From positions 13,924,827 to 13,988,826 of the forward strand of contig CM037476.1 of assembly GCA_021014325.1 (NCBI GenBank): DNA of 64,000 nucleotides. The letters run 5' to 3'. The position numbers were made by a program, and so were the translations under genes. The notes below the pieces were generated by a model. It made no database searches. It saw nothing but the letters and a program-made list of their open reading frames with translations, and was not told the origin of the DNA. Positions within the stretch are counted from its first letter, which is position 1, and every line of letters starts with the position of its first letter. The stretch comes from Plazaster borealis (lineage: Eukaryota; Echinodermata; Asteroidea; Forcipulatida; Labidiasteridae). Below are positions 1,570 through 55,300 of the stretch, piece by piece.

Positions 1570-4500
1570 CTATTCTTTGAAACCATTGGCAGCTTCAACA
1601 TCACCGTATCCCATATCAAGCTTTTCCTTCTTGATTTTAACATCTTCCTCATCTTGAGGCACCTCTTCTTCATCGTCAGCTGGATATGAGACCAGGCCAA
1701 CATCCTCACCACCAACTCCTTCAATCTTAACCTTGACATCTGGCGGCTCCTCGTCTCCGTAATCACCACCACGGTCACGCTCTCGCTTACGGTCACGTCC
1801 ACGATCCCTGTCCCTGTCCCGTCTGTCACGGTCACGGTCACGATCCCTGTCGCGATCTCGCCTCCGTCGGTCACGGTCTTTGTCACGGTCCTTGTCACGG
1901 TCCTTTTCACGGTCTCGTCCGCGGTCCCTGTCACGGTCTTTCTCAATGGCTTCTTGGAGGTCCTTGTCCTGGTCCTTATCATCATTTTCTGCTTCAGCGC
2001 CATCCTTTTCGACTTCTCGTTCACCCTCTCGCTCTCGATCACGGTCCCTCCTGCGCCTTTCCCGATCGCGGTCCCTATCACGATCACGATCCCGATCCCG
2101 ATCACGATCACGGTCCCGGTCCCGGTCGCGATCACGGTCCCGATCACGATCTTTGCGCTCTCTGTCACGATCCCGATCCCGGTCCCTATCCCTATCCCTA
2201 TCCCTTCTACCAGAACGCTCCACAGGTTCCCTTTCTCTATCACGCTCTCGGCGGCGTTCCCTGTCCCGATCATGACTCCTGCTGCGATCTGGCCGTTCGT
2301 GTCGATCTTTGTCTCGATCCTCTTCATCTCTGTTTAAAAACAATTACAAGATTGGGTTTGTTGACTATAACAAATAAAAATAAAAAAATGGCAAATCACA
2401 CTAAAGTTCATAGTATTTTTCAGCATTTTCTTTGGCATTCTTGTTATTTAGGAAGAGGAAATCAACTGATCAGCTGAAAAGTTGAATGCCTTAATAACTA
2501 ATAATAATAATTAGTATTTATATAGCGCCTTTAACAAGAACGAAGCGCTTCACAGTGAACCTAGGACATTAACAGAAGCTAAACAGAAACAGAAAAAGGT
2601 TTTAAGAAGTTTTGTTGAATGTCTGAATTGAAGGAGAGTCTCTGATGTGAACAGAGTTTGTTCCATTCCCTATGGAAAAACCCTTGTCTCCCTGTACTAC
2701 GAGATTTGATGCCAACATGTTAACGGGAAAGTATCAGATGAAGACCGAAGCCCCTGCCTACCTGGGACATAAAATGACAGTAGGTCAATCAGGTAGGGAG
2801 AAGCTACGCCATGCTGGCACTTTTATAGATTGAGTAATAATTTGAATACAATGCGATGTTTGGCTGGTAACCAGTGTAGTTGCTGCAGGAGTTCCGGGGC
2901 AATAATTGTTTCTGTTTATAAATTTATTTGATATTAATGCAAAGGACTCACCTTGCCGCAGCTGCTTGCGATGGTTCCTCTCTTCCAGAGTGACGGACAT
3001 TGTTATCAGGGCCACCCCGTCTAGTTCCTCCCAATCCACCACCTACCGATAATAATGATAATAATAATAATAATAATAACAGTGGCTTAAATAGCGCTCA
3101 ATTCCGTCAAGCAGTAACGCTCAACAATTTGCAAAAGACTGTGGACAAATAGGTTTTGAGTAATTGTTTGAAAGAACTAGCTGATGAGGCTTGACGGAGG
3201 GCAAGTGGAAGACTGTTCCAGAGATTAAAACAAACACTTACAGTTGTCAGACAACACAGCATCAACTGTTTTGAATTTGGTGTTTTGATAACTATCAACA
3301 TGGACCCTGTTCAACAGTAAGCTTTTGCTTAAAAAACAATTTATTTGTCGTAAAATAGGGCAACAGTTTTGCCAAGGGGAAAAATCTAATAATGTGTTAA
3401 ATTGGTTCAAGCACAATCAGCTCGAGAGAAACTGAGCATAACAATTCTCTCCTCTTCAAGAAAAAGAAGACTAAACACTCCAAAGTAAAAAGAAATGCCT
3501 GCACTGCAACTGTTGTCAAGATTTTACAAAACAAAAGAAATGCACCTGTATTTACAGTTTTTCTAACAGATCAATTGTTCACAGACCAAGAGGAAAACTA
3601 GGCCTAATTTCATGGCACTGCTTACCACAGGAGTCTGCGCTTACGACCCAGAGAATCACACACTTCACAGGGCACTATAAACTCAGAATTTTATGTGGTA
3701 ATCAGATCCATCAGGGCCCAATTCCATAAAGCCTGTAGGCACAAAAACTTGCTAAGCACAGAAAAATTATGCTTAGCAGGAGCAGGTTACCGGCCGAAAC
3801 TCTATAAAGTTTACATTGTTGTGACTGGTGCCCAACTCATTTTTGGCTTAGCAAAGAAAAGTTATAAGCAGTATATTCTGCTCAACAGCTTTATGGAATT
3901 GGGCCCTGTACATGGAAGTGCAGCATTCTGTGGTAAGTAGCGCCATGAAATTGGAACCTGCTTTTGAATGCATTTTGGTTTTCTTACCTAGTCTCCGTGG
4001 CAGCCATCCCTTGACCGTCCCCTCCCTCATGACGTCTACCAAGACTCTCCGCCCATCAATCTTCTTGCCATCAGCATACTTGTAGGCATCTACGGATTAA
4101 AGAGAATTAAAACGTCAGAGCATAACGCCTAGGAATCTGCTTTACGGTGCTGAAGTGTCCAAAACATGCAAACTACTGCCACAACAAAATCACAATATCA
4201 CCTGCAAGGGTTGAAGGTCATTTGAGGTGTGTCAAAGGTCATATCACTTCTGATGACATCGTGTCTTAAGCTTGATGACTATGTGTTGTGTGGCGCGAGA
4301 GAAGAGAAGCTTTCCACATCTTGAAGTTTGACCATTATTTATACTTACAACTTGACCCTGTTATTTTTAAAACTTTTTTCTCTTTTTTACAATGGAGGAA
4401 AGCTATAAGTAAATTCATTACGTACATCTGTAAACACAGGAAAATAACAGTTTGGGAAGTCTAGAAACTTAAGATAAAACTAGTTGACAATCCTTGAGAA

Positions 4501-7500
4501 AATATAGTAGTGTATAGATTCTCTGAATGTCAAATATAATGGGTGGTTGGTAATTTTCTTTAGCTACTTCAAAACTATGGAATAATTAACCACCTGTGAA
4601 ACTCAACACCAAAAATCCACTGACATTTTAGGGCTATGTCAAATGAGGCAATCTACAGGCAGCCAATTCCAGGCATCTTCAAAAAAAAAAAATAATAACT
4701 CTCACATGTGAGTTTTCACACAATTTTCTTTGGGGTAGTAAGACATTAGAAAAATGTCCCTTGTGATACTGAAGTGTCCCTTTGTGCAAGCAGTGCAGTT
4801 GCTTGCCTCCATGTTTTCTGTAAACATTGCCTCATGTGACAAGGCCATCTAACCAAACTTAATTGTTCTTTTGCAGTTCAAAATATTTTTAAAATTCAAA
4901 TCCATTTTTACAGTTGGATGTATTTTTATGGAAAAACTGATGACACGATTTTGAACCAGCATTACTAATTTGTCAATTACTCAACTATCATATTAGAGGA
5001 ATTATGCCAACAAAATGGCAAAGAATACAAGCTTGCAAACCGGTTGTTGGAGGACACTCTGTAGTCAGGCGTCTTTATCAATTGAACAGTCTTTTTTGCT
5101 GGCACTCCGGCCACTCCATAAACTTGGGAGAATATTCTCCACATTTCTTATGAGTCCATTCAACGAGAGCATTAGAATTTAGCATGGCGGTGTATCGTCG
5201 CAGTAATAAGTGGTCCTGGGATTTTCCTCTAAACCTTTTATTATGGTGCACCCACCTTTTTTGTCAACTGTTCAAAACCCTGTCATGATATTGAGACTGG
5301 TATGATGGGATTTTGACAAGTATGGTTACAGCATAATAATGGCTTATTGGTAGGAAGTTCGCCGTTTATTATTGCATGGGTGAAAGTCATCGCTGACAAA
5401 AAGGTCTGAAACTAAGATTCAAAGCTTAGGTAATCCAAGAACTCAATTTCACAAAGAGTTAAGATTGATTTTCAACTGCAAATCAATCTTAACTGCTAAG
5501 CAAAGTGTGGTGTAACAATACAAGTCACTATGGCAATTACTAACAACTCATCTTAAGATGAATCTTGGTGCTTTGTGAAATCAACCCCTGGAGCTATAGA
5601 TTGCAAGGAGCTTCTGGGAACAGTTTCATCAGCACCAGAGATGCAGATCAAAGAGAATGAATTACTTATATTTGAAGAAAACAAAAGCTGTTTTTTTTTT
5701 TCACTAAACAGACACAAAAATGCTGAACTCGGATTTAAAACACTGAAATTTCGAATCCCTGGTAATGAACGAACTTGAAACCAGGGCTTGGCCTTCAAAT
5801 GTCCATTAACCAGGCAAGAAAATTACAATGCAGGTAGGATTTTAAATAATCCGATGGCGAGAAGTGAGATTTTTGGTGGCAAGAGATGAATTTCCTTTCA
5901 GTTGTAGGATTGACAATGTCTGCTCCCCGGCTTGGTCTCCGGCTTAGGCTCCATCAGTTATTTTGAAATCGAACACTTTTCAAACAGGTAGACGAGCCTA
6001 AGCCGGAGCCACAGTTTCAAAAAAGATGCCATTAGTCATACATTGATCCACAAATATTTCTCCATGTTATAATAATTGATCAATACATGTTCCAGTTTTT
6101 TGTAACCCCCCCCCCCCAGTTGGGAACAATTTCATAAAGCCTGTAAACACAAAAACTTGCTGAGCAAAAAACAAAAAACATGCTTAGCAGAAACAGATTA
6201 ACAGCCAACATTCCATAAAGTTCACATTGTTGTGACTGGTGCCCCACTCATTTTGTACTTAGCAATTTTCTAATCAGTATTTTGTGCTGAACAGTCTTTA
6301 TGAAATTGGCTCCATTCCACAGTTTCATACCTACACTGCAAGAACAATGGGTTTACCAGCTAAACAAGAAATACACAAAACCTAAAGAGGACAAATGTCA
6401 CCAATACTATCGTTACCATTTCTGCTGCCGTCATTTGTAATATTTGACGCAAATGGGCTTACCACCCCAGCAAGCTTTTCACGGAAGAACTTACAACAAT
6501 TAACATAGCCACAATGACTACCTTACAGGTTGCAATCACCAATATTACCTGCATCCATGTTAGAAACTCACCGTTAAAAACTTACAAAGATTTGATGGAA
6601 GGTATCTTATTGTCACCAAAATTAGTTCTGTCCTTCGAGTTGAATACTTACAACAAGACTGTTTGGGCTTACCAACCCAGTGTAAATCAGACACTGAAAA
6701 ATGTATAATTAAAAAAACATACGACCAATTCACAGAGACCACTATACATGTACCCGTTTCCCAATGAGTTAAAATTTTTTTTTTTAAATAAACAGTCGGC
6801 CAACCAACCTAAGAACTCACACTCCCCATCCGTAATTTCTTCATCCATAACTTCTTCATACATGTACGTATCACCGTTACCTTCAGTCCAGAGTCCTGAT
6901 AAACGCAATTTTGTAATCAGGCTTGAACTTTTCATCAGTGTTTGCAGTTCTCTAGAGACATGTAGACACCACGTTGGGCTTACCGACCCATCAACCATTT
7001 CAGACTCTAAAAACCAGCTTACCCCAGCCCTCCCCCTTCCCCTGACAAATAAAGCAAACCATAATAAAATGCTTACTCCGCTCCCTACAACTATTTTTGA
7101 ACATCACTTGCATCGTTGACTCCGCCGAAAACTTACAACACTCGAAAGAACCCAGGTTCCACTTCTGCTGTACATGGTCCACCAACTATGGGGCTTACCA
7201 AACCCGACGACAACAATCACTTACATGTACGCTTACTCCAGCTAACAGTGTTTGTAAGTCAATCAAATAGGAAAAACATGCTTCTAGTTTCTTAAGAGCA
7301 AAGCACTTACGTAAAAGGGGACATCGTAGAAACCTCCAAACGGGAAAAGACAAATGCAGTCAAATCTTTCCAGTAAAGTACTTCCAAGATGTTCAACAAA
7401 TCATGGGCTTACCAACCCGGCAGATTTACATACGACAAAAAAAATTACGAAGTACAAATTGTTCCTTAATACAGCACAGGTCTTACCAGCCTGTCATCGG

Positions 7501-10500
7501 TATGATTTATGAAAATGTTTTGTAACAAAGTACTAAGTCTTGTCAAAAACAGAAAACTTTTTCATTAGATCTTAAAACGATTTAAAAAAAAAAAAAAAAG
7601 ACTTTGAAAAAAAGTTAACATGCATTCTTTGGTGAAACTTTCCCCCACTTGTATTTCAAATAAAATGTTAGTTCAAAAAGTGCAGTTTCTTTTCATAATT
7701 GAAAGCAAAAATCAAATGCATAGTTCGACACTTGAGTGTGAAAAAAAAAAAAAGACACAAATTTACCTGGCACCTTACCAAGTCTTACCAAAACACTTCG
7801 CACGCCAAGCCATCACGATTGGAAACAGTGTTGACACATTCCAGGTATGAGGTTGTAACGCTGGGTAACTTACCCGGAACATGGCACATACCAGGGGTCC
7901 AACAATTTGGGCACAAGAAATAATGGAGTTTCTAAAAAAGGTTTGAGCTAATTAGCTGATCACTAAAACATTAAATGATTGGTACTACCGTACATGTACT
8001 TATCATTGTTTGGTTTTTGTCAATGATGATTCATAGGCAAAATTATCAAGAAAGATACAATAAAAGTCACATGTGAAAGTTTCAGTTGAATACAGTGACT
8101 ACTTGTTGAGGAAAACAGTAAAAACTGTCACAGCATTTTCACCAAGAATGCCAAATCCATGGTTATTGTTTTTATTTGTTAACAGGATCAAACAAAGTGC
8201 TATCGTTGGACGCCTGGTATGGTCTGCACTTCTTACTTTTTAATTCCTTACTTTGGTTTCTGTTGTTACGATAATTTTAATGACTGCAGATGTCTGTTGT
8301 TGTTTGTGGTATGACTGAAGAGTCTGATATTGATTTTTGTTTTGTTTTAAAACTTAAGATGATGCAATTCTTGAATGTTATCTTAAAGAAAACAAAAAAA
8401 CTTTCAGATTTGTGAAACTAAAGCGATTCCACTTCAGAAATTAGGTGAACAAAATCACACAAAATATAGCTTGATGTTTCTAAATTTTTGGTTGAACAAA
8501 GACAAATTGACTAGAGCAGGACTTGAACCTGCAACCTCCAGATTAACACCCCTTGTGGTTTATTACTAAATGTTTCTTGTTGGTGTTGTTGTTACATGTA
8601 TTGACTTTAAAGAGAATATTTGCTCAAACATGTTCTTGTTGATTTATAGTGTAATAAGCAGAACAGTGCGAACACTGTTCTACCAACTTTTACTACATGT
8701 TCATGTACTGTGTGACACCCCGACAGGAACTTCAGCACAGCTAGCATTCTGACCCCATTGAAGTGAGTGTTCTTCCACAGCAAGGTTCCCCCCAAGTTTT
8801 TTTCAAAACTGTGGGGCATTCTGGACCCTAATTTGTGGATGTTTGGCCGAAGCACGCTGAATTGAAACAAGGTCTTTGGAATGTTTTCTACTTGGTGTTT
8901 ATCTTAGTTTTAAAAGCCCTCTTGTGCAATCTGGAGCATTCTAGATGGTTTTCTCTTGATGTTTTTTTGTGAAATAAAACAACAAAAATTAGTTTGCGTA
9001 TCAGCCCGATAGGCTAGCTTGTGCATGGGGAGAACCCTGAACAGCTACATACTATATGTCTTTTCAAAGGTTAAACATTTTAGTGTCTTGTGACTATGAG
9101 ATAGAATGTTTTTACTGTATGGTTGTTAAAGCGAAACCCCTTCCCCCTTCTTCACCCACCCACCCCTCCCTCATTGGCCCATTGGGTATGTCTGTGTGTT
9201 GAATATGGGAGGCCAGTGTACCGCTTACCATATCATATACAAACCCATCCATGAAATGGATTAATGACTAGGCTTAGAGAGACAGCAAGGCTGAGGCTTT
9301 GTCATGCCAGGCCGACTGACTGAGTGGGGGCAGCACACTATGTGTGGCTGTATTGAAAGGGTGACAAAAAGATACAGTTACGTCAGTGTGTGGTAAGGCT
9401 AGACTATGTGGGTATAAATTACCCTTAAATACATGTAAATCCTTATATTTATAACAGTTTAGTTACTAGGAATTACGAACTACTCATAAATACAGTAACT
9501 TTGGTATTAAATATCAAACTCCTTGAGCTTACGGGAGTGCCCTTGTGGGGCCTTTACACAATGGACCCCACCAGGGAATTCTTTGTTCAACCTGGACCCC
9601 ACAAGGAAATTCTTTAGAAAAGGGAATAACAGAATAACAATAGTAGGACCCCACAAACCCGATCCGTAAGTTGTGTGTTCCTACATGTACATGTGTGTTA
9701 TAACTCTTACAATCCTCAAGATTAGACCCTTCCCATGAAATATTATGTAAATTGCACATCGTGGGTGCGTACTGACGCTACTGCAGGGCAAAATGAGGGG
9801 AACATCGCGCCTTTTTTGTATGGGGCCGATGGTGGCGTGACGCATGCGATTGTCCATCTGCCTAGTGCACAATTCAGGGGCATTTGCCAACTAATAGTGT
9901 CTTGGCCCATGCGTGAATATAATCAGCATATTTCATAGGAAGGGCTAATTCACATAGGGGTAACAGAGGCCCTGGTTTTGATTTTGGAGAATCTCAAAAT
10001 TCATCCCTTTGAATTTTTTTTTCATCTGCTCTTTCAGGTTGATTACAAAAAGAGGGGACCTTATGCACTCTATTTTATGGCGAACAAGATACATACTGGT
10101 CAAACTGTGTACTGTAAAATTTCACATTTTGCAATTTTGTACGTAAAAACAACAGCTGAACAAATTTTGAGATCTGCCTCCTTTCTTCAAAAAAATAAAC
10201 GAAAACAAACCATACACAGGCCTGATGCTTCATTCTTGAAAGGGCAAGAGTACCAAGACATTTTCTCCTAATGCAAAGGGCGCGTCTCCGAGGAAATTGT
10301 AAATTTCTATTAAAATGTTTTTACGACACCAAGGCAATGACCAGATGGCCTACGTTGCCTCCACGAAGCATCAGGCCTGCATATGGTGCTATCTCCATAA
10401 AATGCAACATTTTGTTTTCAACCATTGAGCTGTGTACAAGTCCAGGCTCTTTTTTTTTTTTTTGCAAACGTGTGATAGTCACATGTGACGCTCAATGCCA

Positions 10501-13500
10501 AAACCAGGCGCTTCCTGCCAGAACTCAAAACTGGGTTTTACTTGCTGACCAAAAAGACGAGAATAAACCATTTCAACATCTATAGGGCCTAAAGAGTAAG
10601 TAATTATCGATATACAGAATGTTTCCGACATCACATTGATGTCATGGCCAATGTTTCAGTTGTTCTCACTTTTCATGCCATTGAGAAGTGCCTGTTTTTG
10701 GCACAGGCGTCACACACATTGCTCAACAGACCCCTTACTTTTGGCCGCCATTGCTGAGATCAAATAATGGAAATGTGCAAGCGCGTACGTGCCATGCACA
10801 ACTCTCAGCCAATGAGGGGTATTTCTTTGACCTTAGTGAGGGCACTGTTTGAGCTTGTGACATCACTAAGCAAGGGGGTCTATAGAATTGCTCTTAATTT
10901 TGGAAACATTGCCAATGATAATCAAGTTTAAGGCCAGCGAGTGCAACTGGTTTTCAAGCTTGATATCTAGAAAACATCTGCAAAGTACAAGTTTACACTA
11001 ATCAGTATTGGATCCAGTGGAGGGATGTCGAAGGGGATCCAAAGGTCATTGGTAGTCGAAGGGTATCCAAAGGTCATTGGTAGTCGAAGGGTATCCAAAG
11101 GTCATTGTAGTCGAAGAGTATCCAAAGATCATTGGTAATACTTACGGATACATACAAACCTATCTCTACTTACCGTAGAAACACTCTTACAGTCAGCTTA
11201 AATGATTAGGTGTCAGTGCAAAAAAAGCTGTTTCAACAAAAATGGCCTCTATGTGTCTCCATTTTTGAAATTGCAACAATGTTTTTTTCATACAGCGCAA
11301 AGATATCTTCTTTTTTTTGGAACAGAACCTTTCTAACTATTGCTAAATTCATTGTAACAGAATTGAGTTCTGACGATTTTGCACTGACAACTTATTTTTA
11401 CTTTTAAAAAATCCCTGAACACAATTTTGGAAACAGGAGACTGCAGTTTCAAGTCCTAAATTTATCTTGAAACTGCAGTTTCAAAACTACCTTTATTAGT
11501 ATCTAATACCTATAAAAATGAGCATCCAAAATGTATTCGCGAATCTCATACCAACACCAAGTCTGAAAAATTGGTACTTCAATATCTGTGTACAGCCTAC
11601 GGAATCAAAAGCCATGAGAATTCCAGCCTGTTACCGGCTAAATGCTTCTGAAGCTGAGATAACAGGACTTGCCTAAGGAAGTGTATATCATTTAAAATTT
11701 TGTTTTGGGTTAAACGGAACCACCAAATTTGATGAAATCTCCACAGGTCAGTCGTATAGTGTGTTGCTTGATAACTTTTGTTTGAAAACTTTTGTTTGAT
11801 AACTACAGGATGGGAGTTAACTTCAGACCCTATACATTGTTCTGGTAAGGGCAGGGCAGTTTTTCTTTAGTAAGGGGCACCTCTACGAGAGAAATGTAAA
11901 TTTCTACTGGAACATTTTAAAAGGGCAAGGCAACGACCAGGGGCATGGAGGCAATTGCCTTCATTGCCTCTGTGAAGTATCAGGCCCGCAAAAACCCATT
12001 CATGATGTATTTTCTCTTCATGTTCTGTTCTCGAGTCAGATGAAAGGCACTTTATGTGCAGTGTTTATAAAATACACGAGGAACTAGAGGGCGTAAAAAT
12101 AGTGTCTCAGCCCGACAAAAAGCATTTTTGGCCATTGAGAAAATGATGCTGATCCAACAGATGTATAAAGCAGGTCACGCACCGGTTCACAAGACCAACA
12201 TTTTGTAAGTGGGCATTTTTATGTGTGTTACCCATAAGGATTTGTGCTCATGGTGGGACAGCCCGGTTACGTGAGTGTCACAACAAGTACTCCCTCTAGT
12301 TCTATTAAATAACTCTAGGATCCAGAATTGCGGGATTTAAGTTTACTAGACGATACCATTGTTTATGGAGGGAGGGAAATTGGTACTTACTGTGCATGTC
12401 TCTCTCATGTTCATACTCAATGAATGCGTATCCTCTTGGCTTGCCAGACTTCTTGTCATGAACAACGTGGATCTGGAGATAAATCAGAGGTAAGAGTCAT
12501 TCCTGAGAAAATAATTCTGAATCTAGGTAACCTCGTTCCCAGTGGTGTACGATTTCGCCGCGCCGTTTGTTTTTCCCCAAAAATGCCTTGCTCGATCGTA
12601 ACCCCTGGAAGTGTGACTATAAAATATCCAAGTTGAGACACACACAAAAAATTGGGAAGTTGAACTTGTGTGTGCCTTGACCGCTTTTAGACTTTTTTAC
12701 CTACAATTTATTTTTAAAAAGTAGTAAATTACAGATAACATGGCATTAAACGTATTATAATTTGAGCACAGGGCGCTGCTACAATAAACATGATAAAGGA
12801 AACTACAAAACAACATACCATCTTGATAGGTCCGTAGGATTCAAACTCTCGACGAAGCTTAGACTCTGATGTGTCGTAGTTCTGCAAAAGAGAAAACAAA
12901 CGTTATAAAATTTAACAACTGAGCAACTTCAGGCAAACAAAATTCAAAACCATAGCCGGGGGTTGTAGTCATGAAAGAGACAAGGCCACTAGAGAAAAAA
13001 ATAGCACCCGCATTGTACGCAAGAGCATTGGGAACTGTACATGAACAAGGCACCAAAGCTAAGAAAGGTGCATAATGGACCTCTGAAACACATGGTAAAT
13101 ACATCATCATAGCTGGGTTGTCCCCATGCACAAGCTAGCGTATCATGCTGATACATGCGGCAGGGTTCTCCCCAGGTATTTTCAAAACTGTGGGGCATTC
13201 TTGACCCAAATTTTGAAAGTTTAGCCGAAGCGCGCTGAATTGAAACAAGGTCTTTGGAATGTTTTCTACTCGGTGTTTATCTTGGTTTTTGAAGCCCTAT
13301 CAGTGCACTCTGGAGCATTCTATATGTTTTTTCTTGATATTTTTTTGCATATCGGCCGATACATGCGAGTTGCGGGCCGATACATGCGAGTTGCTGGCCG
13401 ATACATGCGAGTTGCAGGCTGATACATGCGAGTTGCGGGCCAATACATGTGAGTCGCAGGCTGATACATGTGAGTTGCGGGCCGATACATGTGAGTCGCC

Positions 13501-16500
13501 GGCTGATACATGTGAGTTGCGGGCCGATACATGTGAGTCGCCGGCTGATACATGCGAGTTGCGGGCCGATACATAAAAGCGGGCCAATACATGCGAATTA
13601 GGGCAGATACGCAACAACAACAAAAAGGGGGGGGGTCTTGAGATTACCTGATTCACATAACACTTTTTAGAATGCCCAAGATTGCACAGTAGGCTTTTAA
13701 AACCAAAGATAAACACCAAGTATAAAACATTCAGAGGACCTCGTTTTAATGTAGCGTTCTTAGGCAAAACTTCCCAATTTTGGTCTAGAATGCCCCCCAC
13801 TTTTGAAAAATCTTGGGGAGAACCCTGCATAGTGAGGCAATTATAATTTTGCTTTATAACATAAATTTGTATATAAACATTATTTTAATATCATCTTATA
13901 GGCCTATAAATCGGAGTTGAGAGCTCAATCGTTAGGTTTTAATCCATTGGTCATAATGGGACACAGATAGAACCTGAGTACTCGTGATTTGAGCCATGTA
14001 AAACTTCTGTACAGGTTTAGTTTGCAAAAAGGCAAGATTGACTATTTAATTATAAAATACTTACAACCCTCGCGATGAAAAGCGTCTTGAATGGGTCACC
14101 GTTAATGGCTGCTGCAGGCTCCCCTGTACAAAAAGAGCAAACATTGAATAAGGAATTGGTGGCTATCAAGATTTTAGCCAGGATTTGGTAAAAGGGTGTC
14201 CAAATTTGCTGGAAATTTAAAAACTGGGTGTCCAAATTTGTTCACTTACAATACATGAAATTTACATGTAAATGACAGATAAAACAGGGTGTCCAAATTT
14301 AAAACAGGGTGTCCAAAAGACACCCCGACATTCCTCTGGCTAACACTTTATTATTATTATTTTATTTCTCTCCACAAATCCAATAAAAATTTACACATAA
14401 AAGATATACAAAGGATATGGAGAAGGCTAGACTGAGGAGGAAAATAAAATTTCCCTATAACCTAAAGGTTCAGTCTGCCGATGGCAACACTATGGCTGTG
14501 GCTGCAACTGTTGAACTAAGAGTATTGCTAAGGATGTCCTATACTTCAACGCATGATGACACGGTGATCAAGCCATAGCCATAGCTGCAGCCGCTAATTC
14601 GGACACGGCCTAAGGCCCTATCTGAATTGGCGGCTACAGCTATGGCTACGACTGTTGCCTAGGGCTTTCTTAAGGACATCCTATACTTCAACGCACGTTG
14701 ACGAGGCAATCCAAGTGTATACAATAACAGGGATTGCTTGTTTCTGATGACTTTGTGGAATCAAATCTCCATTTCATAATTGATTCAGATCAAAGATATA
14801 CAATGTTAAGTGTTCTTGTTACTTCTTTCTGTAAACCACACAAGTTGTATTTAATACATGTAGTTAACGGCAAGAAGCGACAAGGTGTTTCTGTACCTGG
14901 CGTTTACTACAGAGTAGAGTATTAGCCACTCAACCCTGTGAAATCACCAGGAAAGCATATCATATGCTTTAATATGTTTTAATATGCTTTACTTGATCAA
15001 TTCTATTTTTCACTGAAAACATTTTTCAAAGAATTATTTCTCTGAACAAATTTTAACAGATGTTTGAAAAACGTACAAAAGCTTTCGCATTATGCCATGG
15101 ACAATGCACAAAATACATGTGACATGGCTGATGGACGTGAGATAATATTGGGATCCCAAAAATAATTCATTTTTAGTTTTTAATTAACTGCCACTTATCA
15201 TTGGCGGAGTTTGTCTTGCCAGTTTAAACGAAAGCTTATAACCGTCTCAAAACTATTTAAAATTAAATCTGAATTTTTGGGCAAAATCAGCCAAAAAACG
15301 GACCTAGCATCTTTTTACTAATATGGAATTATCTACCAATCTCCATCCAGAATGCTTCATCTCTTGAACAGTTTAAACCCGTATTTTTTTTTACAAAAAT
15401 TCCAACTTACAGTCTGTGATTGCGGCTTCTGACTTGGCTCTGTGAGCTTCCTCTTTCTCTTTTCTCTTTCTGTCCTTCTTCTCTTCTTTAGTCTCGACAC
15501 GTGTTGGAGGAGGTGTGTCTTTTGGGTCCTGCGCATACGTAAGTAAAATTCAGACTCAGTGAAAATTAAAACAGCTGTTCGCATTCACCACTAAGAATCA
15601 AACTTACTGTTAGTAAATTAATACATGAATACATACTGCTCCCCAGCAAAGTCGCCCCTAGCAAAGCCGCACCTCACAAAGTCGACCCCAACAAAGTCAC
15701 CCTCGACACAGTCGTCCCCCCCCCACAAAGTCGCCCCGTGTAAAAGGTTGTGAGTGATTTAAAGCCATATCACAAAGTCAGGGCGCCCCAAGTTATGGAT
15801 TTAGATTCACACAAACTTTTGTTAGCAGCCTGACGGTTTGACTCTAGCAGAGTCTCTCTCGAAGGCTAAAGCTTTTGCGAAAGCCTCTGCAAGGGTTGGA
15901 ACAAATTTTTGCGTGAATTTAAATCATTAACATGGGGCGCCCTCTCACTTTGTGAAGCTTCTAATAATCGCTCACAACCTTTTACACGTGGCGACCTTGT
16001 GGGGAGGGGGGGTGGGGCGACTTTGATGGGGGGGCGACTTTGTAGTGGGTGACTTTGCTGGGGGTGAGTTGACTGGTTGCGAACAATTCAACGGATGTTT
16101 TATCTGAATATAGCTTGGCGAGTATGCGACGTTATTAATTTAGCCTGCGCGTTACTGTAGGTGTCGCATAAACTATCCGTTGAATTGTGCGCATCCGCAT
16201 GACCCTCACTCTGCCCACAGCCCAGACAGCCGATGACGTCGTTACAATTGATTGGCATGATTGGGATCTTTCCAAAATGGCAGCACTCAGTTTACATTAA
16301 GGGGAGTAATTCGGAGGAATTTTTTTTTTTCCATTTGAAATATCTTTTTAAAAGGTTATTTATTTAAACATCCAAAGCACACAGGGCAGGTAGAGTTAAG
16401 TGAACACATTTAGTTGGTTTAAACCGCCGAACTGTTCGTATAGGGAATGGGCCTTGGATCGTCGATCGCTTAGCTTAACAAAAAATTGGTTCGGACGTGT

Positions 16501-18122
16501 GGCTTCGTGTGGCCAACCAACCATGGAGGTACACCAACCAAGGATTCAGATCTTGGCGGTCCTACTAAAAGCCGACAATGCCAACAACAAGTCCAGTGTG
16601 CCGACAACACGCCGACAACAAGTTTTAAATACCTCAAAAACAGCAAATAAACCAAGGATTTATTAGAAATATGTGTACTATGTAATATTAACAAAAATGC
16701 AATGGCATAACTTCACAAAAAGTCTGAATTTTTAACCAGAAAAAACCCCCGAAGTTACACGGAGTGCAGTCTGACGCCATCTTGGCCTAAAAACCGTGTC
16801 TCGACCATTCCACTATGATACAGGTAAGATGAATTTAGCAAAACAACAGAGGACGGGCGTCATGTGAAGACCTTCACAGTATACCAAGTCTATAGAATTA
16901 GAACTTACCCTAGCCCAGGTTGGACTCCTCCGTTGCATACAACGCGACGGAGTCCAGGGTATAAAGGTCCTCAGGCATTGCGAAAAAATTTATAACCATT
17001 TTTTATCATATTTTTACCTTTTTGAGGAAGCTGAAACGTGACTCACATGTTCCTTGTATCCTGAACCTTACGCCTGCTCTATTCAGAATTGCCAATTTTA
17101 TCCTTGGATGACATTATTGTGAAAATAAAATGGAAATTGACGCATTCGTTGCGACAACCTCAACTGACATGGAACCAAGTCCACAAAAGAGGGCGCTGTC
17201 TAACCCGTAACACTGAACGCTTTTTCTTTCGGGCGGCAACACGACGGAGTCGCAGCGCCAGTGCACAACTTGGACTTATTTTCGGAAATAATGTCATTCA
17301 TGGATGTATTTGATAGGTTTTGAACTCAGCAAAAGTGTAATTAAAGGCACCAAGAATAAGTGAATGGAGTTTCAGCTTCTCAAATTAGGTAAAAATATTT
17401 TAAAATGTTACTCAAAATTTTGTTCGCATTGTAAAGGATCTTTATACCCAGGACGTCAGTGCAGTGGCACTGACTGACGTCCTACCAGGGCTAGAACTTA
17501 CCCTAATTAAATTAAATAAATAATTTCATGTAAAAAACGAACAAGTTTATTTGGTGACCTCTCATTGGCAGTGTATAGTGAAGGTCTTCACATGACGCCC
17601 GCCCTCTGTTGTTTTGCTAAATCCATCTTACCGTATCATAATGGAATGGTCGAAACACGGTTTTTAGGCCAAGCAAGATGGCATGCGACCGCACTCCGTA
17701 AGTTCGGTGTTTTTTTTCTGGTTAAAAATTCAGACTTTTTGAAGTTATGCCATTGCATTTTTGTTAATATTACAAATACATGGTACACTTTGTTTCTGAT
17801 AAATTCTTGGTTTATTTGCTGTTACAGGTGCAACACAAGGACCAGACTGTGTGAACATTCTGAACTAAATTAAAAACTTAGGCCTAGGCCTAAACATCAT
17901 TTAATCAATCACTGGCTTCTCATTTAAATGTTTAACAAAACTTCCACCTTTATGTTGTTAAACTACCCTTCAACTCACCTCAAAGAGACGACAATACTCT
18001 GCCATTCCCATGTAACCATCGTCTTTTTTCTCATGCCGCAGTTTGTCGTTCGGTGGCATGAACCGCAGCGGGTCGCGTGGGGCGAACAACGCCAACAAAT
18101 TTGGTGGTAAATACTGCGTCAT
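1570..18122 (-). CDS. snrnp70: U1 small nuclear ribonucleoprotein 70 kDa (U1-70K), complete, 8 coding exons
   Basis: Core U1 snRNP protein; binds U1 snRNA stem-loop I through its RRM and helps recognise 5' splice sites in the nucleus. Coding exons, 5' to 3' on the minus strand: 18122-17979, 15528-15411, 14123-14065, 12881-12819, 12472-12391, 4089-3988, 3042-2952, 2329-1570. They sum to 1419 nt (472 aa), all with GT-AG introns and compatible phases; human is about 437 aa. The N-terminus begins [20 protein letters not shown], the conserved tail that wraps the Sm core. The RRM spans about residues 100-180, with RNP2 LFIARV (102-107) and RNP1 RGYAFIEY (141-148). A Gly-rich linker ([11 protein letters not shown]) follows. 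The C-terminus is a long Arg-Asp/Arg-Glu repeat, then an acidic tail with two SUMO-consensus-like sites (VKIE, IKKE). Purine at -3 of the ATG. Intron 5 (8.3 kb) holds the decoy 5' splice-site cluster. Confidence 0.97.
2494..2575. repeat. Fragment of a dispersed repeat tail (TTATATAGCGCC type)
   Basis: An AT-rich (AATAAT)n run is joined to TTTATATAGCGCCTTTAAC and AAGCGCTTCACAGTG. The same short motif next to simple repeats recurs near 39400, 54230 and 63305, which suggests a common SINE or LINE 3' end. Lies in snrnp70 intron 7. Confidence 0.45.
3047..3083. repeat. (TAA)n microsatellite at a splice acceptor
   Basis: About nine imperfect TAA/TGA units immediately upstream, in gene sense, of the exon 7 acceptor of snrnp70. 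Read on the minus strand it is (TTA)n and may serve as part of the pyrimidine-rich tract. Confidence 0.6.
3605..3958. repeat. Compound foldback: family A element inside a family M element
   Basis: The outer parts carry the family M inverted ends (AATTTCATGGCACTGCTTACC at 3607; GGTAAGTAGCGCCATGAAATT at the right). Within them, 3714-3906 is a complete family A element bounded by GGGCCCAATTCCATAAAG and its inverse. The right end lies only about 30 bp from exon 6 of snrnp70. Confidence 0.65.
5441..5592. repeat. Foldback MITE, family C
   Basis: A 150-bp element with inverted ends ATTTCACAAAG / CTTTGTGAAAT and internal ATCTTAAGAT. A close copy lies at 40455-40603. A third, at 60541, is interrupted by a TTAA-type element. 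Confidence 0.7.
6120..6312. repeat. Foldback MITE, family A
   Basis: About 190 bp with inverted ends around CAATTTCATAAAGCCTGTA and TTTATGAAATTGG. The interior motifs TTGCTAAGCA and CTTAGCAGAAAC are shared with the copies at 3714, 19573, 25555, 32469, 40607, 44991, 45188, 48040 and 58369. Confidence 0.75.
6455..7873 (-). promoter_or_regulatory. Cluster of decoy 5' splice-site motifs in snrnp70 intron 5
   Basis: CTTAC (GTAAG in gene sense) starts at 6458, 6490, 6522, 6581, 6647, 6668, 6979, 7018, 7072, 7132, 7194, 7220, 7232, 7306, 7408, 7482, 7774, 7784 and 7869. That is 19 sites, where one or two are expected by chance. The other strand has one (near 7254). Five sites lie in a longer shared motif, GGGCTTACC followed by an A-rich base pair and CCC, at 6455, 6665, 6976, 7191 and 7405; the spacings are 210, 311, 215 and 214 nt. 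The sequence between them is not visibly repeated, so this is a recurrent motif and not a tandem duplication. The likely role is binding U1 snRNP to control splicing of its own subunit's pre-mRNA. The motif is observed; the function is inferred. Confidence 0.6.
8014..8160. repeat. Truncated family D MITE
   Basis: Matches the left third of family D (GGTTTTTGTCAATG through ACTGTCACAGCATTTTCACC). The right part is missing. Confidence 0.65.
8490..8562 (-). repeat. tRNA-derived SINE fragment
   Basis: On the minus strand a B-box-like GGTTCAAGTCC sits in AGGTTGCAGGTTCAAGTCCT, followed by GCTCTAGTCAATTTG. The same arrangement occurs at 45950-46046 and 59563-59640. The A-box part is missing, so this is not a tRNA gene. 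Confidence 0.45.
8785..9036. repeat. Family F repeat (CAGGGTTCTCCCC ends)
   Basis: It ends in GGGGAGAACCCTG and its left part matches the left arm of the foldback at 13161-13827. It includes one degenerate GTATCAGCCCGATA unit, where the other copy has a minisatellite. Confidence 0.65.
10728..10882. repeat. Short MITE with GACCCCTTACTT-type ends
   Basis: Inverted ends AGACCCCTTACTT and AAGCAAGGGGGTCT bound a roughly 155-bp, GC-richer interior with GGCCGCCATT and AGCCAATGAGG. It resembles family K at 40849 and 44453 in layout but is clearly diverged. Confidence 0.5.
11027..11138. repeat. Tandem repeat, 28-bp unit, four copies
   Basis: Four consecutive units of GTCGAAGGGTATCCAAAGG followed by TCATTGGTA. 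The third has lost one G and the fourth has two substitutions. Lies in snrnp70 intron 5. Confidence 0.85.
13161..13827. repeat. Foldback element of family F with a minisatellite loop
   Basis: The left arm (about 13161-13330) and right arm (about 13660-13827) are inverted copies; both end in CAGGGTTCTCCCCA. They pair through segments such as TGGAATGTTTTCTACTCGGT. The central 230 bp is an expanded 21-bp minisatellite. Lies in snrnp70 intron 3. Related copies without the expansion are at 8785 and 55787. Confidence 0.8.
13356..13590. repeat. 21-bp minisatellite, about 11 units
   Basis: Unit GGCCGATACATGCGAGTTGC plus one base. Variants alternate (CCGATACATGCGAGTT against CTGATACATGTGAGTCGC), which suggests that pairs of units have been amplified. 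A period divisible by three keeps several frames open on both strands, giving repetitive spurious ORFs. Confidence 0.9.
14463..14720. repeat. Family E repeat, two adjacent diverged copies
   Basis: Segments of the type GCGGCTACAGCTATGGCTAC, then ACTGTTGC, then GTCCTATACTTCAACGCA occur twice, at about 14475-14612 and 14613-14720. Single copies are at 35105-35217 and 43087-43202. A terminus reads TTCGGACACGGCCTA. Confidence 0.7.
15633..16078. repeat. Foldback element with CAAAGTCGCCCC arms (family G)
   Basis: The left arm is a run of CAAAGTCGCCCC-like units ending in GTGTAAAAGGTTGTGAG. The right arm is its inverse (CTCACAACCTTTTACACGTG, then GGGGCGACTTTG units), ending GGGTGAGTTGACTGG. A second copy is at 33790-34310. 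Lies in snrnp70 intron 1. Confidence 0.8.
16634..17826. repeat. Large foldback (about 1.2 kb) beside exon 1 of snrnp70
   Basis: The left arm (about 16634-17085) and right arm (about 17315-17826) are diverged inverted copies. Examples are AACAGCAAATAAACCAAGGA against TTGGTTTATTTGCTGTT, and CGGGCGTCATGTGAAGACC against GGTCTTCACATGACGCCCG. Each arm also contains its own smaller palindrome: GGACTCCTCCGTTGC with its inverse near 16930, and GGACGTCAGTGC with its inverse near 17450. No transposase is encoded. It ends about 150 bp from the U1-70K start exon, within intron 1. Confidence 0.75.
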
Positions 18123-28257: not shown

Positions 28258-31200
28258 TCAGATATGATTTAAACACTGCCGTTTGCTCTCCGGTTCCTTG
28301 GCATCTTCGTCCTCTGACTCGATGACCAGAGCCTGTGACTCGCCTCTTTGAGGTGAAGGCTGCTCATCCTCATACCCTTCCTCTTTCCCTGCCTGATTCC
28401 TACAACTTCTCTGAGTGTTGGAGGAGGTGGAGGAACAGTAGCTGGGCGAGGAGTAACCGTCGGTCAACTCCGGAAGCTTATCCATGTGATTTGGCTCGGT
28501 GTACCGAAGCCTGCTGAGGCTTTGGCAGCGACGCAGATCATCCTGCAGGTTTGGAGCTCTCCCGACCTCCGTGAGGTTGAGAGCTGACTGGGAGAGACGT
28601 TTCGTTAAGTGGCAGCGCAGGGCTTCACGCACCTTGGCGGAAGACTCGCCGCTGAGATGTGGATGCTCGTCGGATCTCAAGCTTCCTTCTTGGTGGGTAC
28701 TGATGTTGTTGCTGCTCTGACTGATGCAGTCCGGATCTCGCTCCATCCTGGATACTCTGTGAACTGATTTGGAAGTGGATTCCTCTGGCGGCCTGGCAAG
28801 GCTAAGGTCCATGCTGGCACTACGCTGCAGCGTCTTGTACTTAAACAAGGGCTGCCAGGCCTTATGTCTTCTGTCTGTATAGCTGGATGGTTCATTTGTC
28901 CTGGTGCAGTTCAATGAATCCCCTCGCAAAAGTCCTTGTAAATGTTTACTACCAGTGGTTGCTGCGCTCATCAGAGTTGGTTCAGCTTGTTTATGCAGTA
29001 ACGATTCATGAAATAGTGTATGAGGATATCTACTAAAATCTAGGCTGCTGGATGTAACCCCTGGGGTTTGAGTTGATGAACTGCTTGCAGCGTTTTCTTC
29101 AGAACCTGAGGTGCATGTGCTTGAGTTTGCCTTGTTTGGGCTACCAGCAGCCATGGCAGCTCTCATGGCATGAAATATGTCTGCTGGCACTGGGATCGGT
29201 ATGGGTATGGGAAAAGGTACAGGAATAAAAATTGGTTGAGGTACCATAACTGTTACGGGGGGCAGAAGGTGACTCGAGTTAGCTCTTGGCGGCTGGAAGC
29301 TTTCATGTGAGTTCACGTCCGGGAGTTTCTGAGGAAATACTGAATTACTTGATGATGAGGTTGTTGAAGCTGAGGGATTCACGTTTGACGACGAGGCTAC
29401 TGGAAGGACAAGTTGCGGTGCCTGGGACCCTTGCAATGGGTGCTGCTGGCGCGGAATGACATACCCTGGAACCTGTCTCACCACGGGAGGCCAGTGCGTG
29501 CCCCTGACCACTACCGGTGCTCGGGCAACAAGTTGTGAATTTCCAACCCCTGGCTGAATAATAGTCTGTAATCCATACACCTGCCCTGCTGGGGGGTTGG
29601 ACGGGGACACCTTGCTTGAAAAAGTATTCGGTGAAGTTACGCTTGCTGTCACAGTGCCACCTTTCTGGCGTTGACTGGCTGACGTAACTTTTGGAGCTAT
29701 AGCGACATGCTGCACCCCAATTATAGTTCGGTTAGAATGATGCTTTGATTTCGTAGTTTGGATCAGAGCCATGGGCAACTGCTTCTCCTGTCGTGCAGCA
29801 GCGGGTTGAATTCCGTTTCCGAGAACGTGTGATTGTGGACTGCTGTCCACTGCCACACTCAGCATCATATTCCCCTCGCCTCGTTCAGATCCTCGCTCAG
29901 TCTCGTCTGAGCTGTTCCCCGCCCCTGCACCACCCTGCTCGCTACCTCCTTGGTCAGCAACCGAGCTGGACTCCATCGACGAGAGGCCAGGGGAAGACCC
30001 CAAGACATGAGTTTCGTGACAGAAGACGTCCATCTTGTACTGGTTCAGACACTTCTCGCTGCAGAACTGGAGCTTTCGCTCCCCGTCTTGAAAATCGATG
30101 TACTCCTTCGTGTGGCGGATGTGGCGACACCAGTAGCACATTTTACTCCGTTTGAAGTACGCCCTGCGACAGGCAGCGAAGCATTTCTCACTGCAGAACG
30201 CTTTGGATTCGGTGGCAGTGTTGAGCGTGTAACGTTTGAAGCCAAAATGCTGGCACCACGCGCAAACAATCTCATATTCAGATGCTGGATTTTCTGCAAA
30301 GCAGGGAAGAAATATAAAACAATTTAAAAATAAGTTTTGGACATACCTACATATAACCGCTTACGAAAAAACAAACAAACATGTCTTTGTGTAACAAACT
30401 CAGGCATCCAGATGTAAACAGAACACAAATAATTATTCTTCTTATTGTTATTATATATTTCTGGTAATAAAACCAAGGATGCTCCACAAGTGAACTTAAT
30501 CACTGTAGCCAGAAGCCTGAGGAAACCTGTGTACAAAAGGGTGCTTGCTATGTGAACCAGAAACATCGGGGTTAATCCCTACTCTTCAACAATAAGTGTT
30601 CTGGGTTCTTTTACGTGCACTACCAATCCTAGAACACCGGACCTATGGCTTAATGTCCCATCCAAAGGACAAAGCAATTATGGTGAAGTATCTTAATCGG
30701 GGACGCAAGTGCCACGAACAAGACTTGAACCCACGCTCTGCTGATCAGAAACACTTGAGTTGCTCTTAACTGCTCGGCCATGAATGGAAACTGAGACCAG
30801 AAAAACACCTGGACTGCCATCAAAAATTGCCTGGCAACTGTACTGTTTGACAAATGGTTTCCACAGGCCCATGACAACCCCCTGCAACACCTCATCAACC
30901 TTATTCCCAGTGGTGTATGATCTCGCCGTGCCATTTTTCCCCAGAATACCTTGCTCCACAGTTACCCCTGGAAGTGTGACTTTGAAATATCCAAATATAT
31001 TGGATATTTTAATTAGTCCTGTGGTTGATCCATTCTGTGTTAGATTTAGAGGCATCAAGTCATAAAGCAACTGGTCCCCTCATATTCTTCTTTGATCTTG
31101 TGATATGTCTTACTGTTTGTAGTTTCGGGTGACCGTGTACAAACCATTTGAAGTGGATTGCGTCAAAATACTTACATTTTGATACTCGCGTGCTTAGCGA

Positions 31201-52338: not shown

Positions 52339-55300
52339 TTATTTATCCTTCTGTTTGCTAAAGTACTTCAGTTTGTCCTCTGGATGGGGAATAATCTGGT
52401 GAAAAAAAGAAGAAGAAAAGTACAAGTTTATCAATTGGTTGTCAAAAGTGTGTTACATCACAGGGCTCGAAATTTACACTGGACAGCAGGCCCGAGGCTA
52501 GTGATTTTAGCATTCGGAAGGTAAAGTCTTGACTGGACAAGTCTGGCGGTCTTGTGTTTTTGTTTAAATGCTGACTGATAAATATCTTTCAATTCTATTG
52601 AGTATTGAAGAATACTTACCCACAATACAAATGAGATAAATCTTCTCTTAGCTCTTGTTCGAATTAAAACAGTTAAAAAGTTAAACAGTGCACCGGTAGG
52701 TTTATTTTTTTCTCATTTCAATGCTGGTCTTGTAAAAACAATGCTGGTTCTGTAAACATTTTAAGCTGCAAGCTTGTGGATTTTCCCCCCAAATTCGAGC
52801 CCTGCATCATTGTATTTTTTTGTGGGACAATTAAATCAAACATGGGAGCAATCCCTCCTTAGACCCCAAGCTTTGCATGCGTAAATATTATAGAGAGTGC
52901 CAACAGTTATATTGGCGCCTGACTATTTCGGACCCAAGCCTCAGTGTGGACCTCATAAGACTTCTCCAGTGCAGGATCAACTAAGATGGCAGACAACCAA
53001 GCCTCTCATGGAACTCGAATGAGGTTGTGTGTCCCGCCAAAATAAAACTTCCAAGTGTGTGACATCACCACGCACCTTGCAAATTATCTTTACTGACATC
53101 CTATTATTTTCACTTACTGTGTCGCTGCCTGGCTTCCAACCTGCTGGGCACACTTCACCATTTTTGTCTGTATACTGGAAAGCCTGCACCAATCTCAAAG
53201 TTTCATCAACAGATCGGCCAACTGGTAAATCGTTCATTGTAATTTGACGTAAAACACCATTGCCATCAATTATAAACAGGCCCCTGAACATGAAAAGTAA
53301 CAACAAGATGAAACTTATAGCAAAGATTAACAGCACTGATACTGTTGAACATTAAAGGTAGGGTCCTAGATTGGTAAATACTCCAACAACTAATGACCAG
53401 GAAGCTTGGCAAGAAGCACTGCAACAATTGAAAGTTTAAACTTAAAAAACTTGACCAAATTTCACTCAAAAACATTTGAATCTGACAGATTTTTGAGGGT
53501 AGGTGTCCGTTCACGAATGCTGCGGTCGGAGATGCGGTTGGTACCCACTGTCACTTCACTAAACGTGCATGGATTCAACGCTCTTTTGAAAATACTGTGA
53601 CAGTTTTCAAGTTGACACTGTATTTAGCTGAAACTTTTACCTATGATTTTTTTTGTACCTTTCTATATAATTTTGCCTATAAATCAGCATTATGTTGACC
53701 CTACCTTTAAAACAAAAACTTTTGTGGGGGATTACCTGAGAGTATGACCCAAGTCCTCCAATAGCACGCCATAATCCTTAGAGATCTGGTGTGTAAGATC
53801 AGATAGAAGCGGGATTGCTATTGGTCCAAGGCCGCCTGCCTTCCGTGGAGTATTCATCCTATTAGAAAAAACAAACAAACAAACAAACCAACTTAGATTT
53901 TAGCTGAAGAGATGATAATGTACTTCAGTATTTAATAGTACGGCAGGCAGGTGAAGGGATTGTGCCTTTGATGATACAAGCATGTAATTTGTCAGAGTAT
54001 GTCATTAGAAAGATATTTAACTATAGGGCCATCGCAGATTTGTCCTTTAATATAACAAGCAATTTTCAGTCGCCACCCCCCCCCCCCCCCCGGCCTAATG
54101 ATGAGAAAAACAATCAACTGAAATCAATAAAAACTCTAACAGAGAATGGAACAAAGGAATTGTGATAGTGAGTTGTCCCTGGAATTGAGGCTACAAAGTC
54201 CTGACCTAATGAACTAATAATAATAATAATACACCGTTCTTATATAGCGCTTTATACTCCCGGTGGGTGTCTCAAAGCGATCAGTATTTTTCTTATAAGG
54301 TAAGTGGAGTTACGTGTTGAGGTATGAGACCTATTCCTTTGCATAGCATCATGTAATGGTTTACAAGGTGCTGTGGCGCAATATGCAGCCAATCAAACCA
54401 GGAACACCGGGGCGAACCCTTTCTCTTTACGATAAGTGCACTGGGTTCTTTTACGTGCATTACACAACACATGATGGTAATATCCTCATTAGGGGAAACA
54501 TACTCTAAATTCTCTAATCTAGATATAAGACCCCATTCGGAGTAGTATAGGAACAAACATACCATGCCAAATGGGTGAACTGAGAATCAACAGACACTGC
54601 AACCACATCTGTGTTGATTTTGTTGAATTCACTGACGTGGTCACTGAAGGCAATGATTTCTGTTGGGCAGACAAAAGTACTGAAAGAAAAAAAATGTAAT
54701 AAAAACAGTTAGAAAACAGATTAGCTCTGCGGAATATTGTAGAAAAATTCTCATTTTTAATCCGCTGTAAATCTAACATTATTCTTCTCATAGTTAATTT
54801 GACCCCAAATTTCCACATAAATAGAAACAAATTGCAAAATAAATATTGAAACTTTATTCAAACTTGTATAATTGTAAACCAGAAATCTGCATTATTAAAG
54901 GAAAATCAAGGCAACAAAACAGTAAAAATTAAGGTTCTAGAACAAAAACATTAATTGACTGTAACCACAACAAATATTATATACATTTGAAATGTTGAAA
55001 AGGCAAATTTGGAAACTAAAATCTGAGATCAAATAAATCAATCTAAATTTACACTACACATTATGAACATCAAATGAAATTTTGCATAATTTGAAACGAT
55101 AAAAAGGCAAGTTTGGAAACACAATCATGTCACTCAGTGATCAAATAAATACATCTTAGTTTAAACTGAACGTGAGGAAAACTAAAATGAAAATTTTGCA
55201 TAATTGATTTCAGGCTGACCTTAAACATGTTAAAAACTGAGAAACAAACTAAATTAGCAAAATCTGATAAAATTACAACAATAAGGACCAATCAAATGAA

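What the first reader, a model, noticed from the sequence alone, without database searches (positions are those of the whole stretch)
6455..7873. Array of 19 decoy 5' splice sites inside the U1-70K gene
Seen: 19 GTAAG motifs on the transcribed strand of snrnp70 intron 5 within 1.42 kb, against one on the other strand; about 1-2 per strand are expected. Known, from memory: in human U1-70K pre-mRNA a cluster of regulatory 5' splice sites binds U1 snRNP and drives a U1C-dependent alternative 3' splice site, giving a nonsense-mediated-decay isoform (Rosel-Hillgartner and colleagues, PLoS Genetics 2013). Inferred: this invertebrate gene carries the same kind of U1-sensing autoregulatory cluster, either ancient or convergent. 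If the intron is homologous, the feedback loop predates vertebrates. The intron splits the RRM right after the EHERDMH segment.
Basis: partly seen in the sequence, partly recalled or inferred. Interest (0 to 1): 0.92.

Follow-up and report, generated by a model that had tools for sequence, protein, structure and literature searches.

The report
U1-binding-site array in U1-70K intron
In what is probably an echinoderm, the gene for a core splicing protein carries a dense one-strand array of sequences that its own splicing particle should bind, in the very intron where human cells use a small cluster of such sites to turn this gene down, so it looks like an enlarged self-sensing switch that still needs RNA evidence.

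Summary
In detail: 19 GTAAG on the transcribed strand and one on the other within 1.42 kb; shuffles give about 2 (maximum 7 in 1000), and outside the cluster no 1419-nt stretch of the window has more than 6 on one strand. The gene is U1-70K; the cluster lies in coding intron 5 (8.3 kb, phase 1, right after EHERDMH). New here: (1) human intron 7, site of the published U1C-dependent poison exon, has the same codon and phase. (2) Database proteins that leave the U1-70K reading frame at this junction come from insects, ticks, decapods, a mollusc, an annelid, amphioxus, vertebrates and a holothurian-like sequence. (3) The array is exact: one-mismatch neighbours are at background, five sites share GGG-N(2-3)-GGTAAGCCC, and their flanks are unrelated. 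Human site sequence does not align above background. Best reading: an enlarged U1-sensing unproductive-splicing switch that works like the human one. U1 binding, alternative splicing, decay and feedback are inferred. No DNA of related species and no RNA data could be examined.

The parts
6458..7873 (-). Array of 19 GTAAG (5' splice-site-like, U1-complementary) at 7873, 7788, 7778, 7486, 7412, 7310, 7236, 7224, 7198, 7136, 7076, 7022, 6983, 6672, 6651, 6585, 6526, 6494, 6462 (5' G of each)
7404..7419 (-). Extended core GGG-N2-GGTAAGCCCA, copy 1 (site 7412)
7190..7206 (-). Extended core, copy 2 (site 7198; N3 between GGG and GGTAAG, CCCC after)
6975..6990 (-). Extended core, copy 3 (site 6983)
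6664..6679 (-). Extended core, copy 4 (site 6672)
6454..6469 (-). Extended core, copy 5 (site 6462)
6348..6359 (-). Degenerate sixth copy (CTGGTAAACCCA), 106 nt beyond copy 5
4090..12390 (-). U1-70K coding intron 5, 8301 nt, phase 1, between EHERDMH and AYKYADGKK
12391..12472 (-). Exon E5 (ends after EHERDMH plus one base)
3988..4089 (-). Exon E6; its 3' splice site is weak (score 1.6 with recalled weights; two other constitutive acceptors score lower)
7874..7931 (-). Candidate alternative exon: acceptor ..ccttttttag|AAACTCC at 7931, 58 nt to the strongest array site (7873); in-frame TAA lies inside that site. Prediction only
6984..7041 (-). Candidate alternative exon: acceptor at 7041 (score 5.3), donor 6983; in-frame TAA inside array site 7022. 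Prediction only
1570..18122 (-). U1-70K coding region: E1 18122-17979, E2 15528-15411, E3 14123-14065, E4 12881-12819, E5 12472-12391, E6 4089-3988, E7 3042-2952, E8 2329-1570; 473 aa

Best explanation
The array is a cis-acting U1 sensor in the U1-70K pre-mRNA. Intact U1 snRNPs pair with its many short U1-complementary sites. Most of these are poor for splicing, so bound U1 marks the intron rather than completing a splice. When U1 snRNP is plentiful this promotes an upstream cryptic 3' splice site by exon definition and/or leaves the intron retained, giving an RNA with an early stop that is decayed or held in the nucleus. When U1-70K (and with it U1C) runs short, the sites empty, E5-E6 splicing resumes and more U1-70K is made. 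This would be the same kind of loop as human U1-70K exon 7a, in the homologous intron, with a much larger and more multivalent array. Shown: the array, its strand bias and exactness, the gene, the homologous intron position, and truncated database forms at this junction in other animals. Inferred: U1 binding, the alternative splice, decay and the feedback.
For: Statistics and strand bias. Only the exact pentamer is in excess: one-mismatch neighbours 26 against 28.7 expected (region 6300-7890). Sites pair better with U1 than 135 GTAAG elsewhere (P=0.018), more often have G at -1 (10 of 19 vs 36 of 135, P=0.023), and strong pairing sites (-8 kcal/mol or better) number 14 sense and 0 antisense in the cluster. 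Five extended cores kept while 70-nt flanks are unrelated. Intron at the same codon and phase as human intron 7. Truncated forms at this junction across phyla, including a holothurian-like read-through form P0138. Human mechanism shown by experiment (PMC3798272); U1-C effect in Arabidopsis (PMC11489095 passages).
Against: No RNA or binding data. No sequence similarity to the human site region above background or to vertebrate exon 7a peptides. Layout differs from human. The U1-pairing advantage over other GTAAG is modest (P about 0.02), T at +6 is not enriched and A at -2 is depleted. U1 pairing does not explain the CCC of the extended core. Acceptor candidates are not outstanding: the one at 7931 scores 0.1, within the range of constitutive sites but near its bottom. 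Conservation in related species was not testable.
Confidence: 0.58

Rival explanations
1. Telescripting or nuclear-retention array: U1 bound along a long intron suppresses premature cleavage and polyadenylation, or holds unspliced RNA on chromatin, without any feedback on U1-70K.
For: The intron is long (8.3 kb) and holds five sense AATAAA (11497, 8564, 8176, 5370, 5242), none inside the array. U1 is known to protect long introns (PMC11489095 passages).
Against: No other stretch of the window has a comparable array. The array is far denser than the scattered sites needed, its nearest downstream AATAAA is about 1.1 kb away, and the gene and intron are exactly those of the human U1 sensor.
Confidence: 0.14
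2. Remnant of an old tandem repeat whose unit contained GTAAG, without function.
For: Five cores with spacings 214, 215, 311, 210 that fit multiples of about 106 nt (as good in 0.8% of 512 random draws; test made after seeing the spacings), plus a degenerate sixth copy 106 nt on.
Against: Flanks of the cores show no similarity (P=0.44 and 0.62 against shuffles), one-mismatch GTAAG are not in excess as decay would leave, and 14 of 19 sites lack the core.
Confidence: 0.1
3. The sites bind something other than U1, for instance an RNA-binding protein that recognises the GGG..GGTAAGCCC element or its hairpin.
For: The extended core is shared on both sides of GTAAG (GTAAGCCC in 5 of 19 vs 0 of 139 elsewhere) and can fold with GGUA in or near the loop; U1 pairing accounts only for GGUAAG.
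Against: Hairpin energies of the five copies are only modestly below shuffles (z -0.3 to -2.2) and there are no compensatory changes to speak of; 14 sites lack the core. Rfam finds nothing in the intron up to E=1.
Confidence: 0.1

Closest known systems
Vertebrate U1-70K exon 7a / U1C cross-regulation (PMC3798272; outline, passages, sections 7 and 12, part 1 of sections 9 and 11 read)
   Same: Same gene, same intron by codon and phase, sense-strand U1-complementary sites inside the intron, candidate upstream acceptors with in-frame stops.
   Different: 19 sites over 1.4 kb, 4.5 kb into an 8.3-kb intron, against three sites within about 40 nt downstream of an acceptor at +642 plus site D in a 3.2-kb intron. 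No sequence similarity. Extended GGG..GGTAAGCCC core not seen in the 40-nt human segment.
Plant U1-70K sixth-intron retention, reduced on U1-C knockdown (PMC11489095, passages)
   Same: U1-70K expression tied to U1-C through one intron with an unproductive isoform.
   Different: Intron retention in a plant; whether that intron is at the homologous position was not tested here (PMC8211703 passages say only that three RRM exons are the same in human and Arabidopsis).
USSE of the U11-48K and U11/U12-65K genes (PMC5473595, passages)
   Same: Repeated, normally unspliced 5' splice sites recruit an snRNP that activates an upstream 3' splice site in a gene for that snRNP's own protein.
   Different: Two U12-type sites for U11; here 19 U2-type GTAAG in a U1 gene.
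SRSF5 alternative exon conserved to sea urchin (PMC4379411, passages)
   Same: Ancient unproductive splicing in a splicing-factor gene reaching echinoderms.
   Different: Different gene and an SR protein; no snRNP-site array described in the passages seen.

Membership tests
Vertebrate U1-70K exon 7a switch | Lies in the U1-70K gene, on the transcribed strand | tested here: met
Vertebrate U1-70K exon 7a switch | Lies in the intron corresponding to human intron 7 | tested here: met
   Human A-C segment translates to CMVGIRVCIMGKI; P0171 has 11 of these 13 residues after EHERDMH plus the exon-7a stretch
Vertebrate U1-70K exon 7a switch | Several U1-complementary 5' splice sites close together | tested here: met
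   19 sites, far above chance; layout differs
Vertebrate U1-70K exon 7a switch | Alternative 3' splice site upstream of the sites, with an early stop | tested here: inconclusive
   Candidate acceptors at 7931 and 7041 with in-frame stops; use not shown
Vertebrate U1-70K exon 7a switch | Sequence conserved with vertebrate exon 7a region | tested here: not met
   No alignment, k-mer or peptide similarity above controls
Vertebrate U1-70K exon 7a switch | U1 snRNP binding, U1C dependence, decay of the isoform | not testable with these tools
   needs RNA-seq, pull-down, knockdown
USSE (U11-sensing element) | U12-type 5' splice-site repeat in a U11-48K or 65K gene | tested here: not met
   U2-type GTAAG sites in U1-70K

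The most novel reading that the evidence does not exclude
Self-sensing of U1 snRNP through this one U1-70K intron is a pan-animal homeostatic switch (possibly older, given the plant data). In this lineage it has grown into a multivalent array of about 20 sites with its own GGG..GGTAAGCCC element, so that the number of bound U1 snRNPs, not one splice site, sets how much U1-70K is made.
Probability: 0.35. Interest if true: 0.78.

Novelty: new variant of a known kind. Interest (0 to 1): 0.64.

Why it matters
If true, feedback between U1 snRNP and its own 70K protein is not a vertebrate invention. A 2021 survey of U1-70K genes (PMC8211703; [quoted passage not shown] The truncated forms at the same junction in arthropods, a mollusc, an annelid, amphioxus and a holothurian-like sequence put that in question and make the age of the loop testable with existing RNA-seq. 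A 19-site array also offers a natural test of dose sensing by multivalent snRNP binding.

Tried and rejected
Chance: rejected. Base composition alone: rejected by dinucleotide shuffles and by one-mismatch neighbours at background. Recent tandem duplication of a longer unit: flanks of the cores are no more alike than shuffles or random stretches of the same intron. My first version of that test was flawed, since masked letters matched each other and two units overlapped, and is not used.

Sequence homology with human: the 40-nt human site region scores at most 25 in the cluster but 28 elsewhere in the window. Shared 7-mers: 14 in the cluster; P 0.056 (0.22 without GTAAG) against shuffles of the cluster, 0.048 (0.088) against shuffles of the human segment. 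Vertebrate exon-7a peptides against every acceptor reading of the intron: best score 29 sense (325 peptides), 34 in the antisense control (326). Known RNA families: none in 4000-12500 up to E=1. A 138-aa open frame inside the array (6687-7103, -): no Pfam match.

Literature: nine searches answered; none of the listed titles or abstract openings reports an invertebrate or echinoderm U1-70K switch (aimed at it). Only the papers named as seen were opened, and the library lacks most subscription papers.

Limits: the own-genome search did not complete (19 calls), so how rare such arrays are genome-wide, and whether other U1 genes carry them, is unknown. No collection with related eukaryotic DNA was available. 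The truncated forms are the best 120 of 722, selected by the tool's length limit (86-273 aa) and by a query cut at EHERDMH; they show where such forms leave the gene, not how often compared with other junctions. Some are gene predictions.
Full report
What is there. The minus strand of the window's first 18 kb carries a gene for the U1 snRNP 70-kDa protein. Eight coding exons with GT/AG borders give a continuous 473-aa frame. The first 247 residues match human U1-70K (PDB chain 3pgw_S, E=1.2e-99) and carry U1snRNP70_N and RRM_1. The best relative listed is a crinoid (P0001, 70% identity over 97%; best 120 of 3428 listed), with other invertebrates close behind. That makes an echinoderm likely, but the species is not identified: proteins longer than about 432 aa were outside that search, and a wider one could not be run.

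The array. Coding intron 5 (12390-4090, 8301 nt, phase 1, right after EHERDMH) holds 19 GTAAG in the sense direction between 7873 and 6458 and one antisense. Dinucleotide shuffles give 1.9 on average and never more than 7 in 1000. Outside the cluster no 1419-nt stretch has more than 6 on a strand. The surplus is confined to the exact pentamer: its 15 one-mismatch neighbours total 26 against 28.7 expected in 6300-7890. GTAAG is the complement of part of the U1 snRNA 5' end (recalled; consistent with the antisense oligo in PMC3798272). Ten of 19 have G at -1 (36 of 135 elsewhere, P=0.023); 16 of 19 have G at -1 or T at +6 (79 of 135, P=0.024); computed U1 pairing is stronger than for the 135 others (P=0.018). 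Against optimised splice sites: A at -2 in 2 of 19 (30% elsewhere), T at +6 in 7 of 19 (54 of 135 elsewhere).

A longer element. Five sites (7412, 7198, 6983, 6672, 6462) share GGG-N(2-3)-GGTAAGCCC; 0 of 139 GTAAG elsewhere in the window are followed by CCC. A degenerate sixth copy lies 106 nt past the last. The spacings 214, 215, 311, 210 fit a unit of 106 nt as well as or better than all but 0.8% of 512 random draws, a test made after seeing them. The 70-nt flanks are no more alike than shuffles (P=0.44 and 0.62). Either the cores arose separately, or they descend from an old tandem array in which only the cores were kept; both point to selection on the cores (inference). The copies can form small hairpins with GGUA in or near the loop, but energies are only modestly below shuffles, z -0.3 to -2.2.

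The human paper prints two morpholinos over regulatory sites A-C. Joined by their overlap they give 40 nt of human intron 7, whose second frame reads CMVGIRVCIMGKI. A protein search with residues 1-155, cut at EHERDMH, returned 722 shorter forms, 120 listed. P0171, 96% identical to platypus up to EHERDMH, continues STIVMAIATAGLQLNLMLPFTTSHCMVGIRVCMMGK and agrees with the human segment in 11 of 13 residues. The hagfish form P0162 begins alike (STIVRA..) and agrees with the third human frame in 6 of 12. Human intron 7 therefore interrupts the gene at the same codon and phase as the window's intron 5.

Truncated forms across animals. My script sorted the 120 listed forms as 18 canonical, 51 reading through the 5' splice site (nGT AAG or nGT GAG after H), 41 continuing in other sequence, 7 ending there and 3 unparsed, which look like read-through by eye. 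The 41 are mixed: some look partial (P0148, P0189, P0193) or like exon skipping (P0136). Twenty fall into recurring families, grouped by eye: vertebrate ST.. (7), lepidopteran Y(P/S)AV (4), FRAAGN (3), YLAMPDG (2, one a tick), SDLPCWLVCSR (2, one a decapod), SAAS (2). Read-through forms include Aplysia, Capitella and Branchiostoma. P0138 is 89% identical to the sea-cucumber protein P0053 up to EHERDMH and then reads GKW, suggesting a retained intron in an echinoderm. These are database sequences, some of them gene predictions. They fix the intron position widely and suggest, without proving, unproductive splicing there outside vertebrates.

What does not match. The human 40-nt region does not align with the array above background, shared 7-mers are not convincing, and no acceptor in the window intron yields a peptide like vertebrate exon 7a above the antisense control. 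The layout also differs. So the window is not shown to carry the vertebrate element; it may carry a separately evolved one in the same place.

Mechanism. In human cells, U1 bound at the cryptic sites activates an upstream 3' splice site, the rest of the intron stays largely unspliced and the RNA is removed by decay (PMC3798272). In smooth muscle, both non-productive Snrnp70 RNAs showed some nuclear retention (PMC5062968 passages); those authors also report that there the event is not mainly driven by the feedback loop. [quoted passage not shown] An array of 19 sites in the homologous intron of the same gene is best read as such a sensor with more sites. Candidate acceptors exist at 7931, 58 nt before the strongest array site, and at 7041; both are followed by in-frame stops lying inside array sites. 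Acceptor-like sites scoring 2 or more number 5 sense and 0 antisense in the cluster plus 100 nt either side. The E6 acceptor is weak (1.6), though two other constitutive acceptors score lower. These points rest on recalled splice-site weights.

Verdict. Observation confirmed. Interpretation partly supported: strengthened on intron homology, weakened on sequence homology, untested on RNA. New variant of a known kind.

Noticed in passing
4019-4030 (E6, minus strand): The RRM end reads [12 protein letters not shown] where the eight U1-70K relatives aligned have VDVER(G/S/A)RTVKGW; a local departure in a near-invariant stretch, or a sequence difference of this assembly.
   Followed up: no
P0126, P0132, P0134, P0137, P0142, P0144, P0154, P0161, P0165, P0182, P0208: Arthropod U1-70K forms that switch to other, lineage-recurring peptides (YLAMPDG, FRAAGN, SDLPCWLVCSR, Y(P/S)AV) right after EHERDMH: likely poison exons in the same intron that the literature seen here does not mention.
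   Followed up: partly
13354-13574: Tandem array with a 42-nt unit (5.3 copies, 94% matches) inside U1-70K coding intron 3.
   Followed up: no
28258-30360 (-): 700-codon open frame matching SOBP (Pfam E=8.1e-33), a sine oculis-binding protein.
   Followed up: no
52977-53351 (-): Exon-sized frame with a 1-cysPrx_C match (E=1.4e-10), probably the end of a peroxiredoxin gene.
   Followed up: no
59560-59636 (+): One tRNA match just above Rfam's threshold (33 bits, threshold 29), possibly a tRNA-derived repeat.
   Followed up: no
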